A stretch of DNA of 37,040 bases. Origin: Stenomitos frigidus ULC18 (lineage in GTDB: Bacteria > Cyanobacteriota > Cyanobacteriia > Leptolyngbyales > Leptolyngbyaceae). Positions 21,310-34,524 of the stretch are shown piece after piece; position 1 is the stretch's first letter; each line of letters opens with the position of its first letter. Location: NCBI RefSeq assembly GCF_003003795.1, contig NZ_PVWK01000154.1, positions 1 to 37,040 of the forward strand. The letters run 5' to 3'. A program made the position numbers and the translations under genes. The notes beneath the pieces were generated by a model. It did no database searches. It was not told where the DNA came from and worked only from the letters and a program-made list of their open reading frames with translations.

Positions 21310-21990
21310 ATGAAGATTTTTGTTGCAGGTGCAACGGGAGCGATCGGTCAGCCGCTGATCGCGCAACTGTTGTCCAAAGATCACAATGTCGTAGCACTAA
21401 CCCGCTCTCTCGAAAAAGCGCAAACGTTAGCGGCGGGCGTAGAACCTGTAATCGCAGATATATTCGATGCCGATGCAATCAAAGCGGCTGTCATTCAGGC
21501 TCAACCAGACGTGGTGATCGAACAGCTCACTGCCCTGCCCAAAACTTACACCCGCGAGTCCATGAGTGCGGCAGCAGCCTTGAATACTCGGATTCGGGTA
21601 GAAGGCGGTGCCAATGTGCTGGCAGCAGCGCAGGCAGCGGGTGTGCGTCGTTATTTGAGGCAGTCGATCGCCTTCTGGGGCATTCCCGGTACAGGCTTGG
21701 CAGACGAGGAAACACCAATCGCGTTTGATGCGTCGCCTGCGGTGGCGGCGGATGCACACATCGTGACTGACATTGAACGCCACTTACTCGAAACACCCAG
21801 CATCGAAGGAATTGCCCTGCGCTATGGCTTCCTCTATGGACCCGGCACCTGGTTTGCGACCGATGGAGACGTTGCAGCACAGGTAAGACAGCAACAGTTT
21901 CCGATCGTCGGCAAGGGTGACGGCGTGTGGTCGTGGTTACACATTGAGGATGCCGCAGCAGCAACCGTTGCTGCAGTGCAAAATTGCACA
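21310..21990 (+). pseudogene. NAD(P)-dependent epimerase/reductase, 3' end lost at IS21 border
   Basis: The frame starts after AAGGAATCAACC with MKIFVAGATGAIG, a Rossmann dinucleotide-binding motif (GATGAIG), as in extended short-chain dehydrogenases of the NmrA/epimerase group. It reads normally through about residue 227 (LHIEDAAAATVAAVQN) and then runs into the IS21 left end at 21991, where an unrelated tail CTCFGT and a stop follow. The family normally continues for another 60-90 residues, including the C-terminal substrate-binding part. The rest of the gene is not found beyond the element, so it is truncated and probably inactive. Confidence 0.82.
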
Positions 21991-22120
21991 TGCTTCGGCA
22001 CCTAATTCTCCGGAGACTTCGGCACCGAAGTGACAACTGCTTCGGCACTCGATTCTCCGGATGCTTCGGCACTTAATTCTCCGGAAACCTCGGCAGGTCA
22101 TTTTCATCCAACTTCGGCAC
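21991..22120 (+). repeat. Multiple left-end repeats of the IS21 element
   Basis: The 24-bp unit TGCTTCGGCACNNNATTCTC, plus CGGA, occurs at 21991-22014, 22038-22061 and 22062-22085; the last two are in direct tandem. Shorter CTTCGGCAC words follow at 22016-22025 and 22111-22120. The right end has matching inverted words at 24561-24593. They are expected transposase (IstA) binding sites. Confidence 0.8.
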
Positions 22121-22167
22121 CTGCGCCTACACTGCACACACTTTAGTGAGCAAGAGCAGGAGTGCCA

Positions 22168-23712
22168 ATGAAACGACAGCAAGGAGGATTACTGCCGATG
22201 GCCAAATTTCGAGAAATGGTGCGCTTGCACGAGCTAGGACATAATCAGAGCGCCATTGCGCAAAGTTGTGGTGTCGCGCGGTCAACGGTGCAGGATTACC
22301 TTCGTCGAGCGACGGCAAAGGGCTTAAGCTCTGCGCAATTAAGCCAGATGAGCGACAGCCAAGCGTTAGAACGATTGGGCAAAGGCAACCGACAGGTGCC
22401 CATCCAAACCGAGACCATTGACTTTGCCCAAGTTGCGGTCGAGTTGCAACGCAAGGGTGTCACCCTGGCACTGCTGTGGCAGGAAGGCTTGGACAAGGGA
22501 GCGTGGCAACTCAGTTACGGTGGCTTCTGCCGACGCTACAATCGCTGGCGAGCCAAGCAGAAGCTATCGATGCGCCAAGTCCATAAGGGGGGCGAAAAGC
22601 TGTTTGTCGATTACTGCGGTTTGACGGTGCCCGTGACGCCTCCTGACACAGGCGAAGTCGTCCAGGCGCAAATCTTCGTGGCGTGCTTGGGTGCGAGTAA
22701 CTACACCTATGCCGAAGCTACCCCCACGCAGGAACTGCCCCATTGGCTGGGGTCGCATGGACGAGCGTTTGCGTTCTTGGGCGGAGTACCGCGCGCTGTC
22801 GTGCCCGACAACCTCAAGTCGGGGGTCACAGATCCGTGTCGCTATGAACCTGGCCTGAACCGCGCCTATCAAGAACTCGCTCAACACTATGAAGTGGCCG
22901 TGATTCCAGCACGACCGAAAAAGCCGAAGGATAAAGCGAAGGTGGAAAAAGCGGTGCAAGAAGTCGAACGACAAATCCTGGCACCCTTGCGTCATGAACA
23001 CTTTACGAGCTTTGCCGAGTTGAACGGGGCAATTGCAGTCCGTCTGAGTGTCCTTAACCAGCGGGTGATGTCTAGCTATGGGTTGTCGCGACAGGCCTTG
23101 TTCGAGCAGGTGGATCAACCGGCCTTGCGTCCGCTCCCCGTGCAGGCGTTTGTTCTGGGGCAATGGAAGCGTGCCAAGGTGAACCTGGATTATCACATCG
23201 AAGTCGAAGGGCATTACTACTCGGTGCCTTACCACTTGGTGCACTGCCCGGTCGAGGTCAAAGTGAGCGAGACACTGGTAGAGGTTTTTCATGAACATCA
23301 ACGCATGGCTTGCCACCAACGCTCACGAGTGCGCTATCGGCACACGACGCTACCCGCTCACATGCCACCCGAACATTGGGCGTACAAATCACAGTCGAAG
23401 GATGGCTTTCTAAGTTGGGCGGAGCGCATCGGGACTCAAACCAAAGCGCAGGTGCAAGCCATCTTTGAGAGCAAAGCGCATGAAGAGCAAGCCTTTCGCA
23501 GCCTCAAAGGCTTGCAAAGGTTAGCCGGGCAATATGGCAAAGACCGCCTGGAAGCGGCTTGTCATACGGCCAATGTCTTGGGCATGGTCGGACTGAAACG
23601 ACTGCGCTCGTTGCTAGAGCACCGCTTAGAGCAAGCGCCTGTCTGTGCTCAACCGCCATCAACGGCCCCGCTTGAACATGCCAACTTGCGGGGTGCCCAG
23701 TACTATCACTAA
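22168..23712 (+). CDS. istA: IS21 transposase IstA
   Basis: The 514-residue DDE transposase acts with IstB to cut and join the element ends. An N-terminal helix-turn-helix (FREMVRLHELGHNQSAIAQ and VARSTVQDYLRRA) is followed by an RNase-H-like core with the first Asp in LFVDYCGL (about residue 148), the second in AVVPDNLKSGV, and the Glu in KAKVEKAVQEVERQI. A C-terminal beta domain (WKRAKVNLDYHIEVEGHYYS) is typical of the family. The ATG at 22168 is chosen because AGGAG lies five bases upstream. Length is normal and no frame break is seen. Confidence 0.93.
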   Translation: MKRQQGGLLPMAKFREMVRLHELGHNQSAIAQSCGVARSTVQDYLRRATAKGLSSAQLSQMSDSQALERLGKGNRQVPIQTETIDFAQVAVELQRKGVTLALLWQEGLDKGAWQLSYGGFCRRYNRWRAKQKLSMRQVHKGGEKLFVDYCGLTVPVTPPDTGEVVQAQIFVACLGASNYTYAEATPTQELPHWLGSHGRAFAFLGGVPRAVVPDNLKSGVTDPCRYEPGLNRAYQELAQHYEVAVIPARPKKPKDKAKVEKAVQEVERQILAPLRHEHFTSFAELNGAIAVRLSVLNQRVMSSYGLSRQALFEQVDQPALRPLPVQAFVLGQWKRAKVNLDYHIEVEGHYYSVPYHLVHCPVEVKVSETLVEVFHEHQRMACHQRSRVRYRHTTLPAHMPPEHWAYKSQSKDGFLSWAERIGTQTKAQVQAIFESKAHEEQAFRSLKGLQRLAGQYGKDRLEAACHTANVLGMVGLKRLRSLLEHRLEQAPVCAQPPSTAPLEHANLRGAQYYH

Positions 23713-23723
23713 AGCGATTGCAT

Positions 23724-24475
23724 ATGAATCCATCAACGGTTGAACAACTCAAAGCGCTACGTTTAAGTGGGATGCTCGAAGCCTGGAGTGAGCAACACAC
23801 TCACTCGACCTATCACGATCTGGGCTTTGATGAACGCTTCTCTTTGTTAGTGGAGCGCGAACATCACCGCCGTGCCCAACAGCGACTGCAGCGCCGTCTC
23901 AAGCAAGCCCAACTCTCGACGACCGCTTCGGTGCCTGATATTGATTTTTTAGTACCCCGTGGTCTAGTCAAAGCCAAGTTTCTCGAACTTGCCGGTGGCC
24001 AATGGGTGCACGAGCATCTCAACTTAATGCTTGTGGGACCGACCGGCGTGGGCAAAACCTTTCTCTCCTCGGTGCTGGCTAATAGTTGTTGCACCCTCGG
24101 ACAGACAGTGCGCTACATCCGCAGTGCCGATTTGATCATGGAACTCAAATTGGCTCGAGCCGATGGCTCCCTGCCCAAGTTGCAACGTCAATTAGCGACT
24201 GTCATCTGCTCGTGCTCGATGACTGGCTGCGCGATCCACTGCCACTGCAAGAGGCGCGCGACTTGTTGGACTTGCTTGATTTACGCTACCGCAAAGCCTC
24301 CTGCTTATTTGCCACGCAACTCCCGGTGGAAGACTGGCATGGCCAAATTGCTGACCCAACCTTGGCCGATGCCATCCTCGACCGCATTGTGCATGACTCG
24401 TTGCGACTGGTGCTTAAAGGGGAGTCGATGCGCAAGCTCACGAGCAAATTGCATTCCCATCCCCAGTCAGCTTAA
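23724..24475 (+). pseudogene. istB: IS21 helper ATPase IstB, frameshifted
   Basis: IstB is the AAA+ partner of IstA. Residues 1-157 read MNPSTVEQLKALRLSGMLEA, with Walker A GPTGVGKTFL, up to PKLQRQLATV. The Walker B (HLLVLDDWL) and the C-terminal helices follow in another frame and end at 24475. The frame changes near 24195-24205, so the natural product would be cut before Walker B. A single-base sequencing error is possible. It begins 11 bases after istA stops, as usual. Confidence 0.85.
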
Positions 24476-24600
24476 TTCAGTCAATTCTTTTATTTCATTT
24501 TGTGTTTTTAGACGCACTGCTGATGCGATCTCATTGCCGATCTGAATTAATAGGTTTAGACCTGCCGAAGTTGACGGTGAATCCGGTGCCGAACTCGTGA

Positions 24601-25353
24601 AAATACAGCAATGACAACCAGGTTCATCTCATCACGCATGTCATCACGACGCCTGCCCATCAGGCTGATGTGGCGCAAACAGAGCCTATTCATGCGGCCT
24701 TGCAAGCCAAAGCACGGTTACCCGAACAACACATTGTCGATGCTGGTTTTGTCGATGCTGACCTACTTGTGACCAGCCAACAGCACTACGGGATTGCGCT
24801 CATTGGACCAGTCCGTCCCAATGTGAGTTGGCAGGCTAAGACACCCGGTGGCTATGACATCAGCCAATTCCAAGTGGACTGGCAAACGCAACGGGTGACT
24901 TGTCCGCAAGGCAAGCAGAGTCAGCAGTGGAAGCCTACAGTCGATGCTTGGGGAAATCCCATCCTGCCTGTGCAGTTTCCGCGAGCACAGTGCCGCCAGT
25001 GTCCCAGCCGTCACTTATGTACTCGCTCGAAAACGGCACCACGAGAACTCACTTTGCGTCCTCAAGCTGAGTATCAGGCCTTGCAAGCGGTCCGGCAGCA
25101 ACAAGAAACTGAGGCATGGAAACAAACCTATAATCGACGGGCTGGCATTGAAGGCACCCTGTCTCAAGGCGTGAATGCTTTTGGACTACGGCGGTCACGC
25201 TATCGCGGTTTGGCAAAAACGCGCTTGCAGCATCTGCTGACTAGTACGGCGATGAACATTGTGCGAATGGTCGCTTGGTTGCAAGGTGTCCCTCATGCCA
25301 AAACACGGGTTTCTCGCTTCGCCGCACTTGCACCTGAGCCAGATTACGTGTAG
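24601..25353 (+). pseudogene. IS1182-family transposase, 5' truncated
   Basis: The open frame DNQVHLITHV...EPDYV, about 250 residues, is the C-terminal half of an IS1182-type DDE transposase. VDAGFVDADLL carries the second Asp and RRAGIEGTLSQG carries the Glu, followed by the typical RYRGLAKTRLQH. A Cys-rich segment (CRQCPSRHLC) lies between them. The N-terminal half with the first Asp is missing: the frame begins a few bases after the IS21 right end, preceded by a stop. The gene cannot be active. It sits directly before the drmB remnant. Confidence 0.88.
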
Positions 25354-25360
25354 CACATTC

Positions 25361-25711
25361 GCCAACAGCATCCGTTACTACTCAAACCCCGGTTACGGTA
25401 TTTTGCTGCACACTGGCACCTCGGGTTCCGAAGGCACCCTGGGTGGACTGGTCGAGGTTGGCAGACACATCGAGTATCATCTGAGCAAAGCCCTGGAGTA
25501 TGGTCAGTTATGCTCCAACGATCCGGTTTGCGCTCAACATCGACCGGATGATCAGCAGGAAGATCGTTTCTTACATGGTGCAGCCTGTCATGGGTGTTTA
25601 CTGATTGCCGAAACATCTTGTGAACGCCGTAATGAAATGTTGGATCGGGCGTTAGTAGTCAACACAGTTGCAGGACTGGGGGCTGCCTTCTTCCCAGAGG
25701 CATTGCTATGA
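25361..25711 (+). pseudogene. drmB: DrmB (DUF1998) C-terminal fragment of a DISARM system
   Basis: About 116 residues match the C-terminal DUF1998 domain of DISARM DrmB. The clearest parts are NPGYGILLHTGTSGSEGTLG, GLVEVGRH, the Cys-bearing CSNDPVCAQHRP, and CHGCLLIAETSCERRNEMLD, which looks like a zinc site. Normal DrmB has roughly 600 residues, so over three quarters is missing, replaced by the IS1182 fragment. The stop overlaps the drmC start (ATGA), keeping the original operon spacing. The fragment has no visible start signal of its own. Confidence 0.85.
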
Positions 25712-26511
25712 TGTCTCCTTTTCTCAGTTTGAGCCGTCCGGCTCTGAGTGATCTGGCTGACGCTTTAGCGCTAGAGCGGCTTAGTTTTCCGGTTTATCCG
25801 TTTACCTTGGCTAGCTATGTTTCCGAAGACCTGGGACCTGTGTTAGCTGTAGAGTTGAACAAGCTACGGCAGCAAGGCATGAGTTCAGCCCATATCGCCT
25901 ACATGCTAAAGCTGCTGGCACAGGAACGAACCATCGCGCAGCAAAAACAAGAGCAGACCGCTTTGGTTTGGACCGGACCGGAAGTAGTGGGCGCTGAAAG
26001 TAGAGATACGGCTGTTGTGGTTCGAGAGTTGTTTAGTAGTGCTCGCCACAGTGTGCTGCTTTCTAGTTTTGCGATCGATCAAGGTGCCAAAGGGCATGCA
26101 CTCTTTCGCCCGCTGGTAGACCAGATGGCAGCCAACCCCAAACTGAGTGTACGGATGTTTCTTAACGTCAAACGTCATTACAACGATGCGACTCCAGCCT
26201 CTACTTTATTGCGACAATTTGCCGAAACTTTCCGCAACCACGTTTGGGCGGGACAGCAGTTGCCAGAGGTGTTTCATGATCCAAGAGCACTCGAACTGTC
26301 TACCCATAGCAATGCCTGCTTGCATGCCAAATGTGTCGTCGTAGACGAGGAGCGAGTCTTCATCACCTCAGCCAATTTCACGGAGGCAGCTCATCAACGC
26401 AACATTGAGGCGGGTGTTCTCCTTTCTAATCGAGTGACGGCAAGAGCCATTCGTTCTCAGTTTGAGATGCTAGTCACGCAAAAGATTCTTCAAAGAGTAC
26501 CAGGGCTTTAA
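25708..26511 (+). CDS. drmC: DrmC, phospholipase D-like protein of DISARM
   Basis: This 267-residue protein has the size and layout of DISARM DrmC: an N-terminal helical region (about 1-75) and a PLD-type nuclease fold with the HKD motif His206, Lys208 and Asp213 in HAKCVVVDEERVFITSANFT. Only one HKD is present, as usual for single-domain members that dimerise. DISARM protects against phage using DrmA, DrmB, DrmC and a methyltransferase; DrmC is reported to be dispensable in some systems. Here drmA, the methyltransferase and most of drmB are missing, so the gene is an intact orphan whose activity is uncertain. Its ATG overlaps the drmB stop. Confidence 0.88.
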   Translation: MMSPFLSLSRPALSDLADALALERLSFPVYPFTLASYVSEDLGPVLAVELNKLRQQGMSSAHIAYMLKLLAQERTIAQQKQEQTALVWTGPEVVGAESRDTAVVVRELFSSARHSVLLSSFAIDQGAKGHALFRPLVDQMAANPKLSVRMFLNVKRHYNDATPASTLLRQFAETFRNHVWAGQQLPEVFHDPRALELSTHSNACLHAKCVVVDEERVFITSANFTEAAHQRNIEAGVLLSNRVTARAIRSQFEMLVTQKILQRVPGL

Positions 26512-26619
26512 CCTTTAGCACTGGTTGCAACCTGACCGGCTATTGACATTTGATCGATAGAGAAGACTGGTAATGCCAGCCGCGCTTTAATTGTAGTGAT
26601 GACATGGTGAGGCATCCCC

Positions 26620-26808
26620 TCATTCATTCGGTACATTCCGATCGAACTCCTCAACCACAGCCGCCACAGCCTCAATCTCATGTTGTAGGTCTTCAATTGA
26701 AGGCAGCTTCGCCTTGAACTCTTCAGGTAGCGCAGCCGTAGTGCGATAAGTCGAGACACTGATCGGTTGGCGCATATCCCGAAGCGCATACTCAACGACT
26801 GCCTTTTT
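26620..26808 (-). pseudogene. C-terminal remnant of a YhcG/DUF1016-type nuclease
   Basis: The minus strand reads KKAVVEYALRDMRQPISVS, then YRTTAALPEEFKAKLPSIED and a stop at 26620. This is the conserved tail of YhcG/DUF1016 PD-(D/E)xK nucleases (EYALRDM..PI.VS.Y....LP..L...LP). The catalytic domain upstream is absent or scrambled; the frame becomes unlike the family before 26808. It is a different paralogue from the intact gene at 30035-31258, whose tail differs. Confidence 0.7.
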
Positions 26809-26842
26809 CTCCCTCTCTTGACAAGCAACAGGTGCAGCCTCT

Positions 26843-26996
26843 TTGCAATTAATCCTGCTTTGAGCGGGTGATTGCAGGTTCGTGGCACCTTAATCTCGAT
26901 TCAGTTGCAACGAATGCTGGTTTGAGCGTTTTGATCATTGCAGTTAATCCTGGTTGGAAAATGTCTTGATTGCAGGTTTGACGGCTTATGATTGCA
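26843..26996 (+). repeat. Degenerate ~33-nt tandem repeat array
   Basis: TTGCA recurs at 26843, 26872, 26905, 26938, 26970 and 26992, spaced 29, 33, 33, 32 and 22 bases. Units share parts of TTGCAGTTAATCCTGGTTTG, AGCG and GATTGCAGG. The repeats vary too much for a CRISPR array and have no constant repeat with unique spacers. It lies directly upstream, on the minus strand, of the YhcG remnant. Confidence 0.55.
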
Positions 26997-27127
26997 GGTC
27001 GCTACAACTATCACCCTTTTGCGGATCAGTGAGAGGAACCTGATTAGAAAACACAGAGCGGTTGCTTGTCCTCACCGCATTACAGCCTGCCCTTACAATC
27101 AGTTGTGATACGGATCGTTCTGTGTTC

Positions 27128-27161
27128 TTGCTCTTTGACTGAAGTTGCTCTTTGACTGAAG
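27128..27161 (+). repeat. Perfect 17-bp tandem duplication
   Basis: TTGCTCTTTGACTGAAG is present twice in direct contact (27128-27144 and 27145-27161), ending 18 bases before the SGNH-hydrolase start. It could be a binding site or a slippage product in the promoter or leader. Confidence 0.7.
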
Positions 27162-27179
27162 CGCTCAAAGCTTCCTTAC

Positions 27180-27941
27180 ATGATGAAGCACCCGTTACTG
27201 CTGCTCTCTCTTATCCTGAATCTGTTGCTTCTGTCTTGCCTTGGCTACATCACTTACAAAATGGGCTACCTCGGCAGATTCCTCATTGCGGCGACGGGCG
27301 ATCAGTTTGCTACACCCACAGATACCCTGAGTGCCCAACCCATGTGGCAAGAAACGGTTCGCTTTCAGCAAATGATCGCTGACCACCACCACTTCAAAGC
27401 CTGCTTGTTCGGTGATTCCATTTCGGCTCAGATCGAGAATACCTTGGGTAACGACACCTATAATTTTGCGATCCCTGGCATGAGTACGCTTTCGCTGCTA
27501 GAGCAACTAGACGCACTCAAGGCAGTACAGCCCACCTGTGACCTTGCCATCCTTGCCATTGGAACAAATGATGCCGCCTATCGCACCAATGAAGCGCAAT
27601 TTGAGCGTAACTTGAAGCAAATCATCGCCATACTCAGGTCAAGCATGGGTACACAGCAAATCGTTCTGCTGCCTGTGTTTTACTCTACCGTTGCTGCCAG
27701 CCATGATCCGTCGATCGCGGGGACGCTAGAGCGTGTCGAAGCGATCAACGCACGGCTTGAGCAAGTTGCCAGCAAGGAGCATCTACCGCTTCAAAAAGAT
27801 GCCACGCAAGCGCTGTTTGCTGGGCAGGCATTACGCGCTGATCTCACTGTTGATGGTGTCCATCTCAACCTGCTGGGTAGACAGATCTATCGCACGGCTT
27901 TGCTGCGGTTGGTTCATACCCATGAGCCGCTGCACGAATGA
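27180..27941 (+). CDS. Membrane-anchored SGNH/GDSL-family hydrolase
   Basis: The 253-residue protein has an N-terminal membrane helix (about 5-25) and an SGNH hydrolase domain. Block I is FGDSIS with nucleophile Ser80, block III is IGTND with Asn130, and block V is DGVHLN with Asp225 and His228, completing the triad. These enzymes cleave esters, often acyl or acetyl groups on lipids or polysaccharides; the substrate is not readable here. The anchor would place the catalytic part outside the cytoplasmic membrane. A second ATG at 27183 is equally possible; no ribosome site is clear. Confidence 0.85.
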   Translation: MMKHPLLLLSLILNLLLLSCLGYITYKMGYLGRFLIAATGDQFATPTDTLSAQPMWQETVRFQQMIADHHHFKACLFGDSISAQIENTLGNDTYNFAIPGMSTLSLLEQLDALKAVQPTCDLAILAIGTNDAAYRTNEAQFERNLKQIIAILRSSMGTQQIVLLPVFYSTVAASHDPSIAGTLERVEAINARLEQVASKEHLPLQKDATQALFAGQALRADLTVDGVHLNLLGRQIYRTALLRLVHTHEPLHE

Positions 27942-30034: not shown

Positions 30035-31258
30035 GTGGAGTACAGCCGCCTCCTAGCCGGAATTAGCTACATCAATAGCTTTAGCCAAATTGCCGTCGCT
30101 CGTGCAGTTAACCAAACGCTCACACTCCGTAACTGGTTAATTGGAGCCTACATCATTGAATATGAGCAAAACGGCGTTGATCGCGCTGCCTATGGCACCC
30201 AACTGATTGAAACCCTTGCAAAAGACCTGAAAAAACGAGGCATTGCAGGCTTCGCTCTTAGTAATCTAAGAAACTTTCGGCAGTTTGCCCTTGCCTATCC
30301 TCATCTTGCTGAAGAAGCTATCTTACCTAAGTTAATCTCCTTCGCCAGACTCGTACCGACTGAGATTCGCCAGACGGTGTCTGGTGAATTGAGATCAGAG
30401 CCTGCTGAAGTGTCTGTTGATGCCATTGAGATTTCCTTCGCAGAGCTTTTATTATTTCCATCTTTGCAAGGTCGCGCTCAAAACGAACCGCCTCTGCTGT
30501 GGCAAGATGCAGCGTATTATCAGAAACTTTTTGCCACCGTATCCTGGTCACATCTGCTAGAGCTTTGTCGGATCAGCGATCGCCTGAAGCGAGCTTTCTA
30601 CGAATTGGAGGCAGTTAAGAGCAATTGGTCTCTTCGCGAGATGAAGCGCCAGATGAATAATATGCTTTACGAGCGCATTGGGCTATCCAAAGACAAAGCA
30701 GCCGTTCTCACGCTTACCCAGCAAGGGCAATTGGTTGACTCTCCACAAACTCTTATTCGCGATCCTTACATTTTAGAATTCTTAGGGCTAGCAGAACGTC
30801 CTGTTTACACTGAAACTGACCTGGAGCAAGCCCTCATTGACCATCTCCAGGAATTTATGCAGGAACTCGGTCGAGATTTCTGCTTTGTTGAGCGACAATT
30901 CCGGATGACGGTTGAGAGTGAACATCACTTTCTGGATCTATTGTTTTACCATCGTGCGCTCCAATGCTTGATTGCGATCGACCTTAAGCTCGGAAAGTTC
31001 AAGCATGACTACGCTGGGCAAATGAACTTTTATCTTAATTACCTACGAGAGAACGTTGCTTATCCCTATGAAAACCCTCCGGTTGGCATCATCCTGTGTG
31101 CAGAACGAGACGCGGAGACTGTTAGATATGCGACCGCAGGGCTAGATAACCAACTGTTCGTTTCTCGCTATCTCATTGCTCTTCCTTCAGAAGCTACGCT
31201 CAAACAATGGTTGCGAGAGGAGCAAGAACGCCTCAGCGAGCCGAAAGAGCAGTCGTGA
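30035..31258 (+). CDS. YhcG/DUF1016-family PD-(D/E)xK nuclease
   Basis: The 407-residue protein has an N-terminal helical DUF1016 domain (about 15-250, with LRNWLIGAYIIEYEQNG, LSNLRNFRQFALAYP and SWSHLLELCRI) and a C-terminal nuclease domain. HHFLDLLFYH with Asp301 and IAIDLKLGKF with Asp316 and Lys318 form an intact active site. The family is common on mobile elements and in defence-linked regions; its exact target is not established. Start is GTG 30035 after AAAGGG. It lies just before the partition operon, on the same strand, with palindromes between. Confidence 0.88.
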   Translation: MEYSRLLAGISYINSFSQIAVARAVNQTLTLRNWLIGAYIIEYEQNGVDRAAYGTQLIETLAKDLKKRGIAGFALSNLRNFRQFALAYPHLAEEAILPKLISFARLVPTEIRQTVSGELRSEPAEVSVDAIEISFAELLLFPSLQGRAQNEPPLLWQDAAYYQKLFATVSWSHLLELCRISDRLKRAFYELEAVKSNWSLREMKRQMNNMLYERIGLSKDKAAVLTLTQQGQLVDSPQTLIRDPYILEFLGLAERPVYTETDLEQALIDHLQEFMQELGRDFCFVERQFRMTVESEHHFLDLLFYHRALQCLIAIDLKLGKFKHDYAGQMNFYLNYLRENVAYPYENPPVGIILCAERDAETVRYATAGLDNQLFVSRYLIALPSEATLKQWLREEQERLSEPKEQS

Positions 31259-31406: not shown

Positions 31407-32267
31407 ATGAAGACACGAAAAGCAGTAAAGCGTCAAATCCGTCTTGCCATTCTTAGCAACGCAGGTGGTAGCGGCAAAACCACGGCAGCGGTTCACCTTG
31501 CCTATGTCATCGGGGTGAAAGGCTACAAGGTTACATTAGTTGAGCTAGATAGTAACGGCTCAATTCAGACCTTTGCCGGACTTCCTCCAGCTAAGGCTGA
31601 AAGCTCTTTGGCAGTAGTTCTCAAAAAAGGTTTTGATGGTAACTATCCATTGATTCCTCTTTGGTCAGAACACGTCTCTAGCATTTGGGCAATACAAGGT
31701 GGCGCTCCCTTAAGGGAAAGCGTCGTTGAAATTAACAACTCTGAGCGGAAATCTCAAACGCTGAGAGATCGGCTGGAAGACTATCCCCTCGAAAGCGACT
31801 TGATCATTTTCGATACCCCTGCATCACTTGACACGATGGGTCTGCTTGCCTTGGCTGCCTGCACACATCTACTCGCCCCGATCAAGCCAGAGTACAAAGA
31901 CACGGGATCATTTGTTGATTTACTTAACTGGTACAACGAAAAAATTCGAGAGCTGCGGCTCAAACCGCGTCCAGAAATTTTAGGGTTTGTCCCATCACGA
32001 GTTGATATTGGAGAAGAAGCCATACACAGAAATCTTTTGGGCTTGACGAAGCAAGGAAAACCAAATAAGAAGATTCCTCCTGAAGAAACTTTACCCTTTC
32101 AAATTGAGCAAATGGGTATCCATTGCTTTCCACTCATTCGAGAATCTAGCTACTATCTATGGGCTTCAGGCGCAGGACTTCCGCTTCATCTCTATCGCCC
32201 CGGTTGCCCTTTCATTGAAGATTTTCAACCTTTAGTTAATGCTGTTGAAAAATTAATGACAGAGTAG
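31407..32267 (+). CDS. parA: ParA-type partition ATPase
   Basis: The 286-residue ATPase moves or positions plasmid copies together with ParB. The P-loop SNAGGSGKTT lies at 17-26 and LVELDSNGS and LIIFDTPASLD provide the A' and B motifs. In the classic deviant Walker A motif (KGGxGKT) the first residue is the signature lysine; here it is Ala19, so this is a divergent ParA/MinD-type member. No N-terminal DNA-binding domain is present, as in type Ib ParA. It starts 31 bases after the second palindrome, and parB follows after 5 bp. Confidence 0.88.
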   Translation: MKTRKAVKRQIRLAILSNAGGSGKTTAAVHLAYVIGVKGYKVTLVELDSNGSIQTFAGLPPAKAESSLAVVLKKGFDGNYPLIPLWSEHVSSIWAIQGGAPLRESVVEINNSERKSQTLRDRLEDYPLESDLIIFDTPASLDTMGLLALAACTHLLAPIKPEYKDTGSFVDLLNWYNEKIRELRLKPRPEILGFVPSRVDIGEEAIHRNLLGLTKQGKPNKKIPPEETLPFQIEQMGIHCFPLIRESSYYLWASGAGLPLHLYRPGCPFIEDFQPLVNAVEKLMTE

Positions 32268-32272
32268 GACTT

Positions 32273-33436
32273 ATGCCCGCAAAGAAACCCGCTTCAATCT
32301 CTCAAATGTTTGCTCCAGCCTCTCAAAATCAAGAAGTATTGCAGCTTCAAGACCGAGTCGAAGAGTTAGAAGACGAGCTACGGCAATTGCGTTTGCAGGA
32401 ACTTGATTCTGATGTAAAAACGGCTTTAGAAGAGCAGATTCAAGAGCTTGCCCAACAGCTTGCTCAACAAGGTGGAGAGCATTATATTTCCCTAGAGCAG
32501 ATTCAACCTGATGCTGATCAACCCAGAACCGTCTTTCCACCCACAGTAATTCAAGCTCGTGCCAAAAGCCTTCGTGAAGAGGGACAACATTCACCAATTA
32601 TTCTGATTCCCCAAACAGAAGACTTATACAAGTTATTCGATGGTGAGCTGCGTTGGCGCTCTGCTTCCCACGCTGGTCTGACTACACTACGGGCAGTCTT
32701 TCTCACACAAGATGCTCTGGACAAACTAGATAGGGCTGCTGTCTTTGATCGTCAACTGACAACCAGCCTGCAATCTGAAAAACTTCATCCTTTTGATCTT
32801 GCCAACGGTTTGGTCAAGTTGATGGTGATGCGTCATCCTCAATTGAATGAGCAGGTCAAAGCGATTCCAAGCTTGCTCAATGCTGTCATCCAACGGTTGC
32901 GACGTTCCGGGGAGATTGCAGAGCTAGAGGCAGTTGCGATCGCAGACCGAATTGTTCAACAGGAGTGGATTGAAAAGGTCTGCGTTTCTGAAACAGAGCG
33001 TTGGATTCTAGAAGCGATCTTAAGTAAGCAACTGAATCCAGTGTCTATCAATAGCAATGTGTTTACCTTGCTAAGCCTACCAGACGACCTTCAGTCAGTC
33101 ATTCGTACTGCGGGTCTAGAAGGCAGTAAAGTGCTGGAGCTAAGAAAGGTTTCTGGCAAGAACTTGCACAGTGATGAAGCGGTAGCAACGGACTTACGGA
33201 TAAAGCTAATCCACGAAATAATCCATCAAGGTCTATCACTTGATAAAATCCGCTTCAAAGTAAAGGCAATTCTTAAAGAACATTCAGATGCACAGCAACG
33301 ACCAAAACCACTTGATCTTGCTCAAAGGCTTTCAAGCATTCCTAAGCAGCTCAAACAGGCTAAGGTTTGGGAAGACGCGCAGAAACGACAGAAATTGGAA
33401 AAGTTACTCAATGAATTAGAGGGCTTGCTGTTGTGA
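32273..33436 (+). CDS. parB: ParB-like partition protein
   Basis: The 387-residue protein has an N-terminal coiled coil (about 22-65), then the ParB/sulfiredoxin-type domain: YISLEQIQPDADQPR (71-85), SLREEGQHSPIILIP (99-113) and GELRWRSASHAGLTTL (124-139), the GERRxRA-like box. A helical middle part (150-260) should hold the helix-turn-helix that binds the centromere, and the C-terminal 80 residues are basic and helical for dimerisation. AGGA lies just before the ATG and the gap to parA is 5 bp, so they form one operon. The palindromes upstream of parA are its probable targets. Confidence 0.87.
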   Translation: MPAKKPASISQMFAPASQNQEVLQLQDRVEELEDELRQLRLQELDSDVKTALEEQIQELAQQLAQQGGEHYISLEQIQPDADQPRTVFPPTVIQARAKSLREEGQHSPIILIPQTEDLYKLFDGELRWRSASHAGLTTLRAVFLTQDALDKLDRAAVFDRQLTTSLQSEKLHPFDLANGLVKLMVMRHPQLNEQVKAIPSLLNAVIQRLRRSGEIAELEAVAIADRIVQQEWIEKVCVSETERWILEAILSKQLNPVSINSNVFTLLSLPDDLQSVIRTAGLEGSKVLELRKVSGKNLHSDEAVATDLRIKLIHEIIHQGLSLDKIRFKVKAILKEHSDAQQRPKPLDLAQRLSSIPKQLKQAKVWEDAQKRQKLEKLLNELEGLLL

Positions 33437-33833
33437 TCAGAAGCGAGGTGATTCTAGCTTTTTTAGATGCACTTCCTAATATCCTCCGTTGCTCAGCCTC
33501 AAGCACTTTCTCATCTCGCTTTTGCATTGGGTGATTTTTACTAGCTTTTCCTTTGACAAGGGCATGCTCTACGCTTGCTGTGACTTTATACGGCATGACT
33601 CGACCGCCACAACCCTTTGTTTGTACGGTGCAACTGGCTCGCCAAACCTGGAACCTGCGTCCCACAAAGCTGCCAAATGTGGGGTTGGAGGAGCAGTGGA
33701 ACGGTAAATGCACTTAAGCATCCTCAATTTGCCCATATCAACCGCCTTAAGCACTAAGAATAAAGCCTTACAGCCTGTTGACATGCCCCATTAATCAAAG
33801 GCAATAGCCGAATCACTATGAGGTGGATACTCA

Positions 33834-33942
33834 TTGCACAAACGTTTGTTTGTGCAACGATGCAAAGCTCACCTAAAATAGACCCATAGCCTGTTGCATA
33901 AACGTATTGCATTATTACAACCATTGGCAACAGGTTTTTGCA
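33834..33942. promoter_or_regulatory. Candidate res site upstream of tnpR
   Basis: TTGCACAAAC (33834-33843) and GTTTGTGCAA (33848-33857) are a perfect inverted repeat with a 4-bp centre, as in a resolvase subsite. Further in, CCTGTTGC (33890-33897) and GCAACAGG (33927-33934) form a second pair, with TTGCATAAACGTATTGCA between. Position and spacing fit a multi-subsite res directly before tnpR. Confidence 0.6.
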
Positions 33943-34524
33943 ATGATGCTCATTGGTTACGCACGGGTTTCAACTCAGGAGCAGAACGCTGGACCTCAAA
34001 TTGCGGCGCTGAAGGCTGCTGGATGTGAACTCATTTTTCAGGAGACTGCCACAGGCGGTCGTTGGGAGCGACCTGAATTGCATCGTCTACTGGGTCAACT
34101 ACGCAAGGGTGATGTAGTGGTGGTCTGGAAGCTCGATCGTCTGTCACGTTCCTTAAAAGATGTTCTGGCCTTGATGGAAAAAATCCAAAAGGCCGAAGCG
34201 GGCTTTCAGAGTCTAACGGAAGCCATTGAGACCACTTCGCCGGCTGGTCGCATGATGATGCAAATGGTTGGTGCCTTTGCCGAGTTCGAGCGCGCCATGT
34301 TACGCGAACGTACATGTAATGGCTTGAATGCGGCTCGAAAGGAAGGGCGCGTTGGCGGTCGCCGCCCCAAACTCAAAGCACACCAGGAAAAAGAAATCCA
34401 ACACTTGGTGGCTTCAGGACAAAAGACCGCTGCCGATGCGGCTCGCCTGTTCAATGTGCATCCGTCTACGGTCTCGCGTTTGCTCGCGCGTCATCAGGTG
34501 ATTGCAGAGGGACTTGAGCCTTAA
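33943..34524 (+). CDS. tnpR: Tn3-type serine resolvase
   Basis: The 193-residue serine recombinase resolves cointegrates or plasmid multimers at res. MLIGYARVSTQEQ holds the nucleophile Ser10, and LIFQETATGG, VVWKLDRLSRSL, GRMMMQMVGAFAEFER and RERTCNGLNAAR complete the catalytic domain. A C-terminal helix-turn-helix (TAADAARLFNVHPSTVSRLL) binds the site. The ATG at 33943 fits the family start; a longer frame from 33907 adds 12 residues within the res region. The stop codon lies inside the right 38-bp terminal repeat. Confidence 0.92.
   Translation: MMLIGYARVSTQEQNAGPQIAALKAAGCELIFQETATGGRWERPELHRLLGQLRKGDVVVVWKLDRLSRSLKDVLALMEKIQKAEAGFQSLTEAIETTSPAGRMMMQMVGAFAEFERAMLRERTCNGLNAARKEGRVGGRRPKLKAHQEKEIQHLVASGQKTAADAARLFNVHPSTVSRLLARHQVIAEGLEP

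What the first reader, a model, noticed from the sequence alone, without database searches (positions are those of the whole stretch)
25361..26511. DISARM anti-phage system eroded by a transposon, leaving the drmB tail and intact drmC
DUF1998 sequence with its Cys motif is directly followed by a full DrmC with an intact HKD motif and the native ATGA overlap. Everything upstream in the DISARM operon is replaced by the end of an IS1182 transposase. It shows recent loss of a defence system on a mobile replicon, and raises the question of why drmC stays intact.
Basis: partly seen in the sequence, partly recalled or inferred. Interest (0 to 1): 0.6.

Follow-up and report, generated by a model that had tools for sequence, protein, structure and literature searches.

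The report
DISARM defence relic cut by transposons
A cyanobacterial anti-phage DISARM operon has been cut away from the left by an insertion sequence, leaving about the last sixth of drmB and a whole drmC, and related genomes suggest ordinary decay from either end and not special preservation of drmC.

Summary
Window 25391-25711 encodes the last 106 residues of DrmB, with the four-cysteine motif, overlapping by ATGA a complete 267-residue DrmC (25708-26511) with an intact HKD motif. Seven related cyanobacterial loci carry this drmC behind a full-length drmB and drmA (drmA cut by a contig edge in one, with stops in another). The own genome has no drmA and no other drmB or drmC found; a 36-residue drmMI fossil lies on another contig.

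Corrections: the junction is 25390/25391, where an IS1182-family element ends at its complete right terminus, not 25354-25361. That element's left part is gone and an IS21-family element abuts it. The right side is eroded too: a 3' scrap of a yhcG nuclease gene, then an interspersed repeat.

Intact drmC needs no special explanation. The orphaned drmB tail shows equally strong past constraint, so the loss is recent relative to the split from the nearest relative. In 388 cyanobacterial genomes loss goes both ways: 5 of 50 drmC loci examined lost drmA and the front of drmB; five loci kept drmA and drmB without a recognisable complete drmC. 'Mobile replicon' is plausible but unproven. An ordinary, well-resolved relic.

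The parts
21310..22005 (+). NAD-dependent epimerase/reductase gene, probably 3'-truncated at the left end of the IS21-family element
   Evidence: Aligns to positions 1-221 of a 304-position reductase model (200.7 bits, under its cut-off of 400), then runs into short repeats shared with the right flank of the IS21 element; not part of DISARM
22150..23712 (+). IS21-family transposase istA (520-codon frame)
   Evidence: NF033546 2.7e-86; no other copy in the assembly
23718..24475 (+). istB-like gene broken by a frameshift (two overlapping frames)
   Evidence: ORFs 23676-24545 and 24086-24475; IstB identity recalled, not tested by a model
24611..25390 (+). Right ~40% of an IS1182-family element: transposase C-terminus (frame 24601-25353) and complete right terminus ending ...CTCAAACCCC at 25390
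   Evidence: NF033551 positions 275-488 of 488; 5 of 11 matching places in other genomes end at window 25390-25392, the other 6 end earlier; a copy in G039 of about 1.94 kb has an inverted terminus at its left end; same terminus at three other places in the own genome
25391..25711 (+). 3' remnant of drmB: last 106 codons (DUF1998/Zn-cysteine part) and stop
   Evidence: Alignment with L003 drmB, 91% nt; NF038324; 7s9v_B
25708..26511 (+). drmC, complete, PLD-type nuclease with intact HKD motif; overlaps the drmB stop by ATGA
   Evidence: PDLC02587 and NF038319; 93% identical to L003 DrmC
26632..26798 (-). 3' end of a converging yhcG (DUF1016/PD-(D/E)xK nuclease) gene, the right-hand neighbour of drmC in L004, L005 and L009
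   Evidence: 82% nt to L005 3869-4035; tblastn 76% over residues 300-364 of 367 at 26829-26632
26798..27006 (.). Interspersed repeat (IS- or MITE-like) that replaces the rest of yhcG
   Evidence: 87% to G038:C61 12273-12479; parts at further places in G038, G037 and the own genome, two of them at contig starts

Best explanation
A class 1-type DISARM operon of a Leptolyngbya-like cyanobacterium was destroyed by insertion sequences. An IS1182-family element inserted in drmB about 106 codons before its stop (shown: its right terminus abuts drmB). DNA on the element's left, with the rest of drmB, drmA and drmMI, was then lost; the IS21-family element now joined to the truncated IS suggests IS-linked deletion or recombination (inferred). 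A repeat cuts a yhcG gene on the right (shown as a junction; that this yhcG was the DISARM neighbour, and the mechanism, are inferred). drmC stayed whole because neither cut reached it and too little time has passed for decay. No DISARM function is expected, because the DrmA helicase and most of DrmB are absent; DrmC may be silent, or expressed as a partnerless PLD nuclease (inferred).
For: Family membership; related loci with drmA, drmB and drmC; no drmA in the own genome (the same protein is found in 80 of 388 genomes), no other drmB or drmC; IS terminus at 25390; yhcG scrap and repeat on the right; drmMI fossil with an in-frame stop on contig C30. Recency: the drmB tail on the window branch has 11 synonymous and 2 nonsynonymous changes, where full neutrality predicts about 32 nonsynonymous. 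Loss in both directions in other genomes.
Against: The assembly is a draft of 167 contigs; no reads across the junction were available. The IS1182 left end, and so any target duplication, is missing; the order IS insertion then deletion is inferred. The yhcG scrap is closer to copies not seen next to DISARM (90% G000:C108, 88% G036:C162) than to the L005 copy (82%). The nonsynonymous/synonymous test cannot exclude continuing selection on drmC: drmC alone gives an even tighter bound than the tail.
Confidence: 0.88

Rival explanations
1. drmC (perhaps with the DrmB Zn-domain tail) is kept by selection as a stand-alone nuclease or as a spare partner for another defence system after the rest of DISARM was lost. 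(It shares the physical history of the main reading.)
For: drmC has 31 synonymous and 7 nonsynonymous changes on the window branch, at least as constrained as in the intact relative (17 and 11; Fisher p 0.09), and departs from none of 101 invariant columns. Two further 5'-truncated loci, G374:C3 and G147:C298, keep an open drmC. Bravo et al. 2022 propose that DrmAB may recruit other PLD nucleases (PMC9142583, passages).
Against: The drmB tail shows the same constraint, so the constraint seen can date from before the loss. In G242 drmC carries a stop, in G294 it lacks about its first 158 residues and in G010 only the last 50 were found. Five loci have drmA and drmB without a recognisable complete drmC. 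No sigma-70-like promoter was found in 24500-27200.
Confidence: 0.06
2. The junction is an assembly artefact, and the rest of the operon exists unassembled.
For: Draft assembly; junctions at repeats are where assemblers fail.
Against: Assembly completeness is given as 100%; drmA and the rest of drmB were not found in the 167 contigs; neither IS showed another near-identical copy in the assembly that could mis-join contigs; the IS ends exactly at its natural terminus.
Confidence: 0.05
3. drmC and the drmB tail arrived here already truncated, by recombination of a mobile fragment, and the operon was never complete at this site. (It differs from the main reading only in where the truncation happened, so the two overlap.)
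For: Window flank genes tested (IS1182 and IS21 transposases, reductase, thioredoxin-like, GDSL lipase) have no match in the regions held of L003-L009; parA-like, parB-like and resolvase genes lie 5-8 kb away; homologous loci occur on plasmids.
Against: Three of the six other genomes of the same genus searched carry the close drmC behind drmB, with drmA complete (G037), with two stops (G039) or cut by the contig edge (G036); a drmMI fossil exists elsewhere in the own genome.
Confidence: 0.15

Closest known systems
Class 1 DISARM (drmMI-drmA-drmB-drmC), as at Leptolyngbya sp. FACHB-321 (L003/G037) and Microcoleus sp. FACHB-1515 (L009)
   Same: DrmC 93% and 74% identical; DrmB tail 91% nt identical to L003; same drmB-drmC ATGA overlap; same gene order at the 3' end
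   Different: The window lacks drmMI, drmA and all but 106 codons of drmB; IS DNA stands in their place. drmD was not traced in any locus
Serratia sp. SCBI DrmB (7s9v/7s9w; Bravo et al. 2022, PMC9142583, passages seen)
   Same: The tail aligns to residues 519-616, including CSxDPxC and ACHxC, which fit the cysteines C559, C565, C581 and C584 named in the paper
   Different: Only the C-terminal module is present here
Other 5'-truncated DISARM loci found here: G374:C3, G147:C298, G242:C213, G294:C99
   Same: drmC or its 3' part survives without drmA; an IS605-type OrfB lies next to the G374 junction and a DDE transposase next to the G294 junction
   Different: Different break points and different neighbours; drmC is itself damaged in G242 and G294

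Membership tests
DISARM (functional system) | drmA, YprA-type helicase | tested here: not met
   No match in the own genome with L003 DrmA; the query matches in 80 of 388 genomes
DISARM (functional system) | Complete drmB with DUF1998 domain | tested here: not met
   Only profile positions 513-604 of 604, the only DrmB match in the genome
DISARM (functional system) | Methyltransferase drmMI or drmMII | tested here: not met
   For drmMI: only a 36-residue fossil with an in-frame stop on C30. drmMII was not searched for
DISARM (functional system) | drmC PLD nuclease (accessory) | tested here: met
   Full-length PDLC02587; NF038319 over its cut-off
DrmB family (remnant) | C-terminal DUF1998/Zn-cysteine module homologous to DrmB rather than to another DUF1998 protein | tested here: met
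   NF038324 148.8 bits; Pfam MZB only 18.7 bits, below its 24.2 cut-off; the only PDB match is DrmB
IS1182 family element | DDE transposase of the family and terminal inverted repeats | tested here: met
   NF033551 179.6 bits, below the whole-protein cut-off of 270, for 214 of 488 positions; right terminus shared with a longer copy in G039 that has an inverted terminus on its left; the left end is absent here
Plasmid or other mobile replicon | Circularity, replication gene, mobility genes | tested here: inconclusive
   ParA-like, ParB-like and resolvase genes at 31407-34524; no exact end overlap at the lengths tested, 20-127 bases; no replication initiator recognised among the window proteins scanned with Pfam

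The most novel reading that the evidence does not exclude
After loss of DrmAB, the DrmC nuclease persists as an autonomous, selected module, perhaps with the DrmB zinc-domain tail, acting alone or lent to another helicase-based defence system; the parallel drmB-tail/drmC units in G374 and G147 would be the same unit arisen independently.
Probability: 0.05. Interest if true: 0.5.

Novelty: new member of a known kind. Interest (0 to 1): 0.2.

Why it matters
It is one well-resolved case of how a multi-gene defence operon is lost piece by piece around insertion sequences. The orphaned drmB tail next to drmC is a useful internal clock: it shows that an intact leftover gene need not be a retained gene. 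The survey of 388 genomes gives a first count, for this drmC clade, of loss from either end, and warns that a drmC hit alone does not mean a working DISARM.

Tried and rejected
Special retention of drmC: tested with branch counts using the drmB tail as control and by looking at loss from both ends; not supported, not excluded. The same codon comparison on the parallel case G374:C3 against intact G160 gave dN/dS 0.139 for the tail and 0.173 for drmC; branch counts (synonymous:nonsynonymous) tail 16:12 and drmC 16:16 on the G374 side against 12:6 and 18:12 on the G160 side: no sign that drmC is held while the tail decays. The counts used the window, L003, L004, L005 and L006; L007, L008 and L009 were left out.

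Junction hot spot: in G242 the drmB homology starts within a few residues of the window's break, but the sequence just upstream is not the IS1182 terminus, so this was treated as coincidence. A promoter driving drmC: no sigma-70-like site found in 24500-27200, 2.0 expected by chance. Left end and target duplication of the IS: not recoverable. A clean end of the IS21 element: not resolved. Complete plasmid: end overlap not found. The order search returned the same 42 genomes as the family search and added nothing.

Technical misses: the scripts failed and were replaced. In one search the L003 DrmB query was out of frame and useless, so DrmB there was scored with the G018 and G013 DrmB only; one search used it in frame. 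In some searches some 'stops' in drmB come from a non-coding extension of the query or cannot be told from one, so I give no count of broken drmB among loci that still have the gene.

Full report
What is there. The window is the whole contig C55 (37,040 bases) of a 6.98-Mb cyanobacterial draft genome in 167 contigs. At 25708-26511 lies a complete drmC, overlapped by ATGA with the end of drmB. The cysteine and HKD motifs are intact. The fragment is DrmB proper, not another DUF1998 protein: NF038324 148.8 bits, Pfam's general MZB model only 18.7 bits and below its cut-off, and the only PDB match is DrmB 7s9v_B.

Where the break is. Alignment with drmB of L003, L004, L005 and L006 shows clear homology from window 25391 on and none just before it. 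The last ~40 bases before that point, GTAGCACATTCGCC...CTCAAACCCC, recur at three other places in the own genome. In the class search 11 places in other genomes match this IS; 5 of them (G039, G057, G195, G277, G171) run to window 25390-25392 and stop, 6 stop earlier. A copy of about 1.94 kb in G039 has a matching inverted terminus on its left. So the IS1182-family right terminus is complete and abuts drmB at 25390/25391. The IS is cut on its left at about 24611; an IS21-family element with a frameshifted istB-like gene precedes it, and beyond that a reductase gene that aligns only to position 221 of a 304-position model. Neither IS showed a second full copy in the assembly.

The right side. 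In L004, L005 and L009 drmC is followed by a converging yhcG nuclease gene, then ParB-like and ParA-like frames (the par names there come from reading the translations, not from a model). In the window only the 3' end of a yhcG remains (26632-26798), then a repeat found at further places in the genus (26798-27006). The scrap is nearer to yhcG copies not seen next to DISARM (90% and 88%) than to the L005 copy (82%), so common descent rests on position.

Intact relatives. All seven loci have a full-length drmB frame next to drmC and drmA before it; L005 is cut in drmA by its contig edge and L007 drmA has two in-frame TAG codons. PADLOC calls L003 and L004 DrmA at over 1000 bits and L009's upstream gene DrmMI at 1408 bits, hence class 1. 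drmD was not traced. In the own genome DrmA was not found, DrmB is only this fragment, DrmC only this copy, and DrmMI only a 36-residue fossil, 81% identical to G037 DrmMI with one in-frame stop, on contig C30.

Why drmC is intact. On the window branch since the split from L003, with L004-L006 as outgroups, drmC has 31 synonymous and 7 nonsynonymous changes (L003 branch 17 and 11; 20 sites unresolved) and the drmB tail 11 and 2 (L003 branch 8 and 0; 7 unresolved). A tail neutral over the whole branch would have about 32 nonsynonymous changes. With assumed omega of 0.035 for the tail and 0.095 for drmC, at most about 17% of the branch can have been neutral for the tail and 5% for drmC (parsimony counts, rough). 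The difference between the two branches in drmC is not significant (Fisher p 0.09). The tail cannot work as DrmB yet is undecayed, so the simplest reading is that the loss is recent and intact drmC needs no selection. Continuing selection on drmC is not excluded.

Loss from both ends. A class search found drmC at E <= 1e-30 in 45 of 388 genomes: 52 rows, 51 loci after joining two pieces in G135:C184. I examined 50 of 51 (not G147:C90, whose match starts at base 6 of its contig). 36 have drmA, at least in large part, and drmB upstream, some with stops, frameshifts or inserted DNA; 9 are limited by contig edges; 5 have lost drmA and the front or all of drmB within the contig: the window, G242:C213 (stop in drmC), G374:C3, G147:C298 and G294:C99 (only about drmC residues 160-267). 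G147 is listed at 8% contamination. G010 (E 2.6e-16, outside that count) keeps only the last 50 residues of drmC.

In the reverse search 80 of 388 genomes have DrmA at E <= 1e-60, 94 rows. I fetched 20 regions covering 21 of those rows: 14 with no drmC known close by and 6 whose genome has its drmC on another contig. Most of the distant group (about 41-47% identity) was left out, and so was G135:C234. drmA and drmB are present without recognisable drmC in G341, G166, G317 and G055, and with only drmC residues 6-60 in G215, whose drmA has one stop. G201 also shows no drmC but is distant (drmB 34%). G330 has drmA alone; G091:C84 has fragments of drmA and drmB. G379 has drmA and drmB on one contig and drmC on another. 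G310 and G237 are distant and show neither drmB nor drmC; G360 and G308 have a distant drmC (31-32%). The other seven end at or within about 120 bases of a contig edge. A divergent DrmC could be missed at that threshold (tblastn, E 1e-5). I see no preferential keeping of drmC, but the two counts come from different samples and are no test of polarity. This agrees with Bravo et al. 2022, who state that DrmC is dispensable, often missing and does not co-purify with DrmAB (PMC9142583, passages), and with the YprA preprint, which describes DrmC as a PLD nuclease typically encoded after the DUF1998 gene (PMC12458937, passages).

Replicon. ParA-like, ParB-like and resolvase genes at 31407-34524, and related drmC genes in 17 of 72,556 plasmid records (nine of the 15 listed at 58-59% identity, the rest at 28-29%), make a plasmid plausible. 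The contig shows no end overlap at the lengths tested and carries a class II fructose-bisphosphate aldolase. I leave this open.

Novelty. Four searches (DISARM with drmC and drmB; with cyanobacteria and defense systems; with incomplete, transposon, pseudogene and defense islands; with drmC alone, listings only) showed no paper on this locus. One cyanobacterial paper reports DISARM genes without a complete system in MAGs (PMC9716671, passages). I take decay of a defence operon around insertion sequences to be a known kind of event (from general knowledge); this is one more, unusually clear, instance.

Noticed in passing
L053 16467-17271 (G031:C33) and L008 478-1157: drmMI is split at the same residue (about 913/922) in two genera by an inserted two-gene module; in L008 it is DUF433 plus DUF5615 (Pfam), and the L053 insert reads like a different module of the same kind (by eye). 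G031 drmMI also has one in-frame stop elsewhere.
   Followed up: partly
G000:C30:3565-3672 (L062): A 36-residue drmMI fossil, 81% identical to G037 DrmMI with one in-frame stop, lies on a different contig from the drmC relic.
   Followed up: partly
L007 4101-7532 (G039): drmA carries two in-frame TAG codons and drmMI is reduced to a fragment with a stop, while drmB and drmC are open: another DISARM in decay in the same genus.
   Followed up: partly
L115 5770-7292 (G374:C3): A genome in 7 contigs has a truncated drmB tail plus open drmC on its 6.6-Mb contig next to an IS605-type OrfB, and drmA-drmB-drmC on a 218,101-base contig, the length of Nostoc sp. UHCC 0926 plasmid NZ_CP117771.1.
   Followed up: partly
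L094 and L095 (G098:C410 and C303): Two similar drmB-drmC ends break off at the same point of drmB at contig ends, and two drmA contigs break off at a matching point: probably two close DISARM copies that the assembler could not separate.
   Followed up: no
window 30035-31258: A second, complete YhcG/DUF1016 nuclease gene (PADLOC PDC-S02) stands just before the parA-like and parB-like genes.
   Followed up: no
L003 705-3389, L052 13026-14756, L004 147-1877 and 1938-4622, L006 129-2828 and 2915-4654: Upstream of drmA (between drmMI and drmA in G037) these loci hold a protein matching MkoA models and one matching Orf5/HEC-06 models of PADLOC (the L052 frame was read by eye as the same kind).
   Followed up: no
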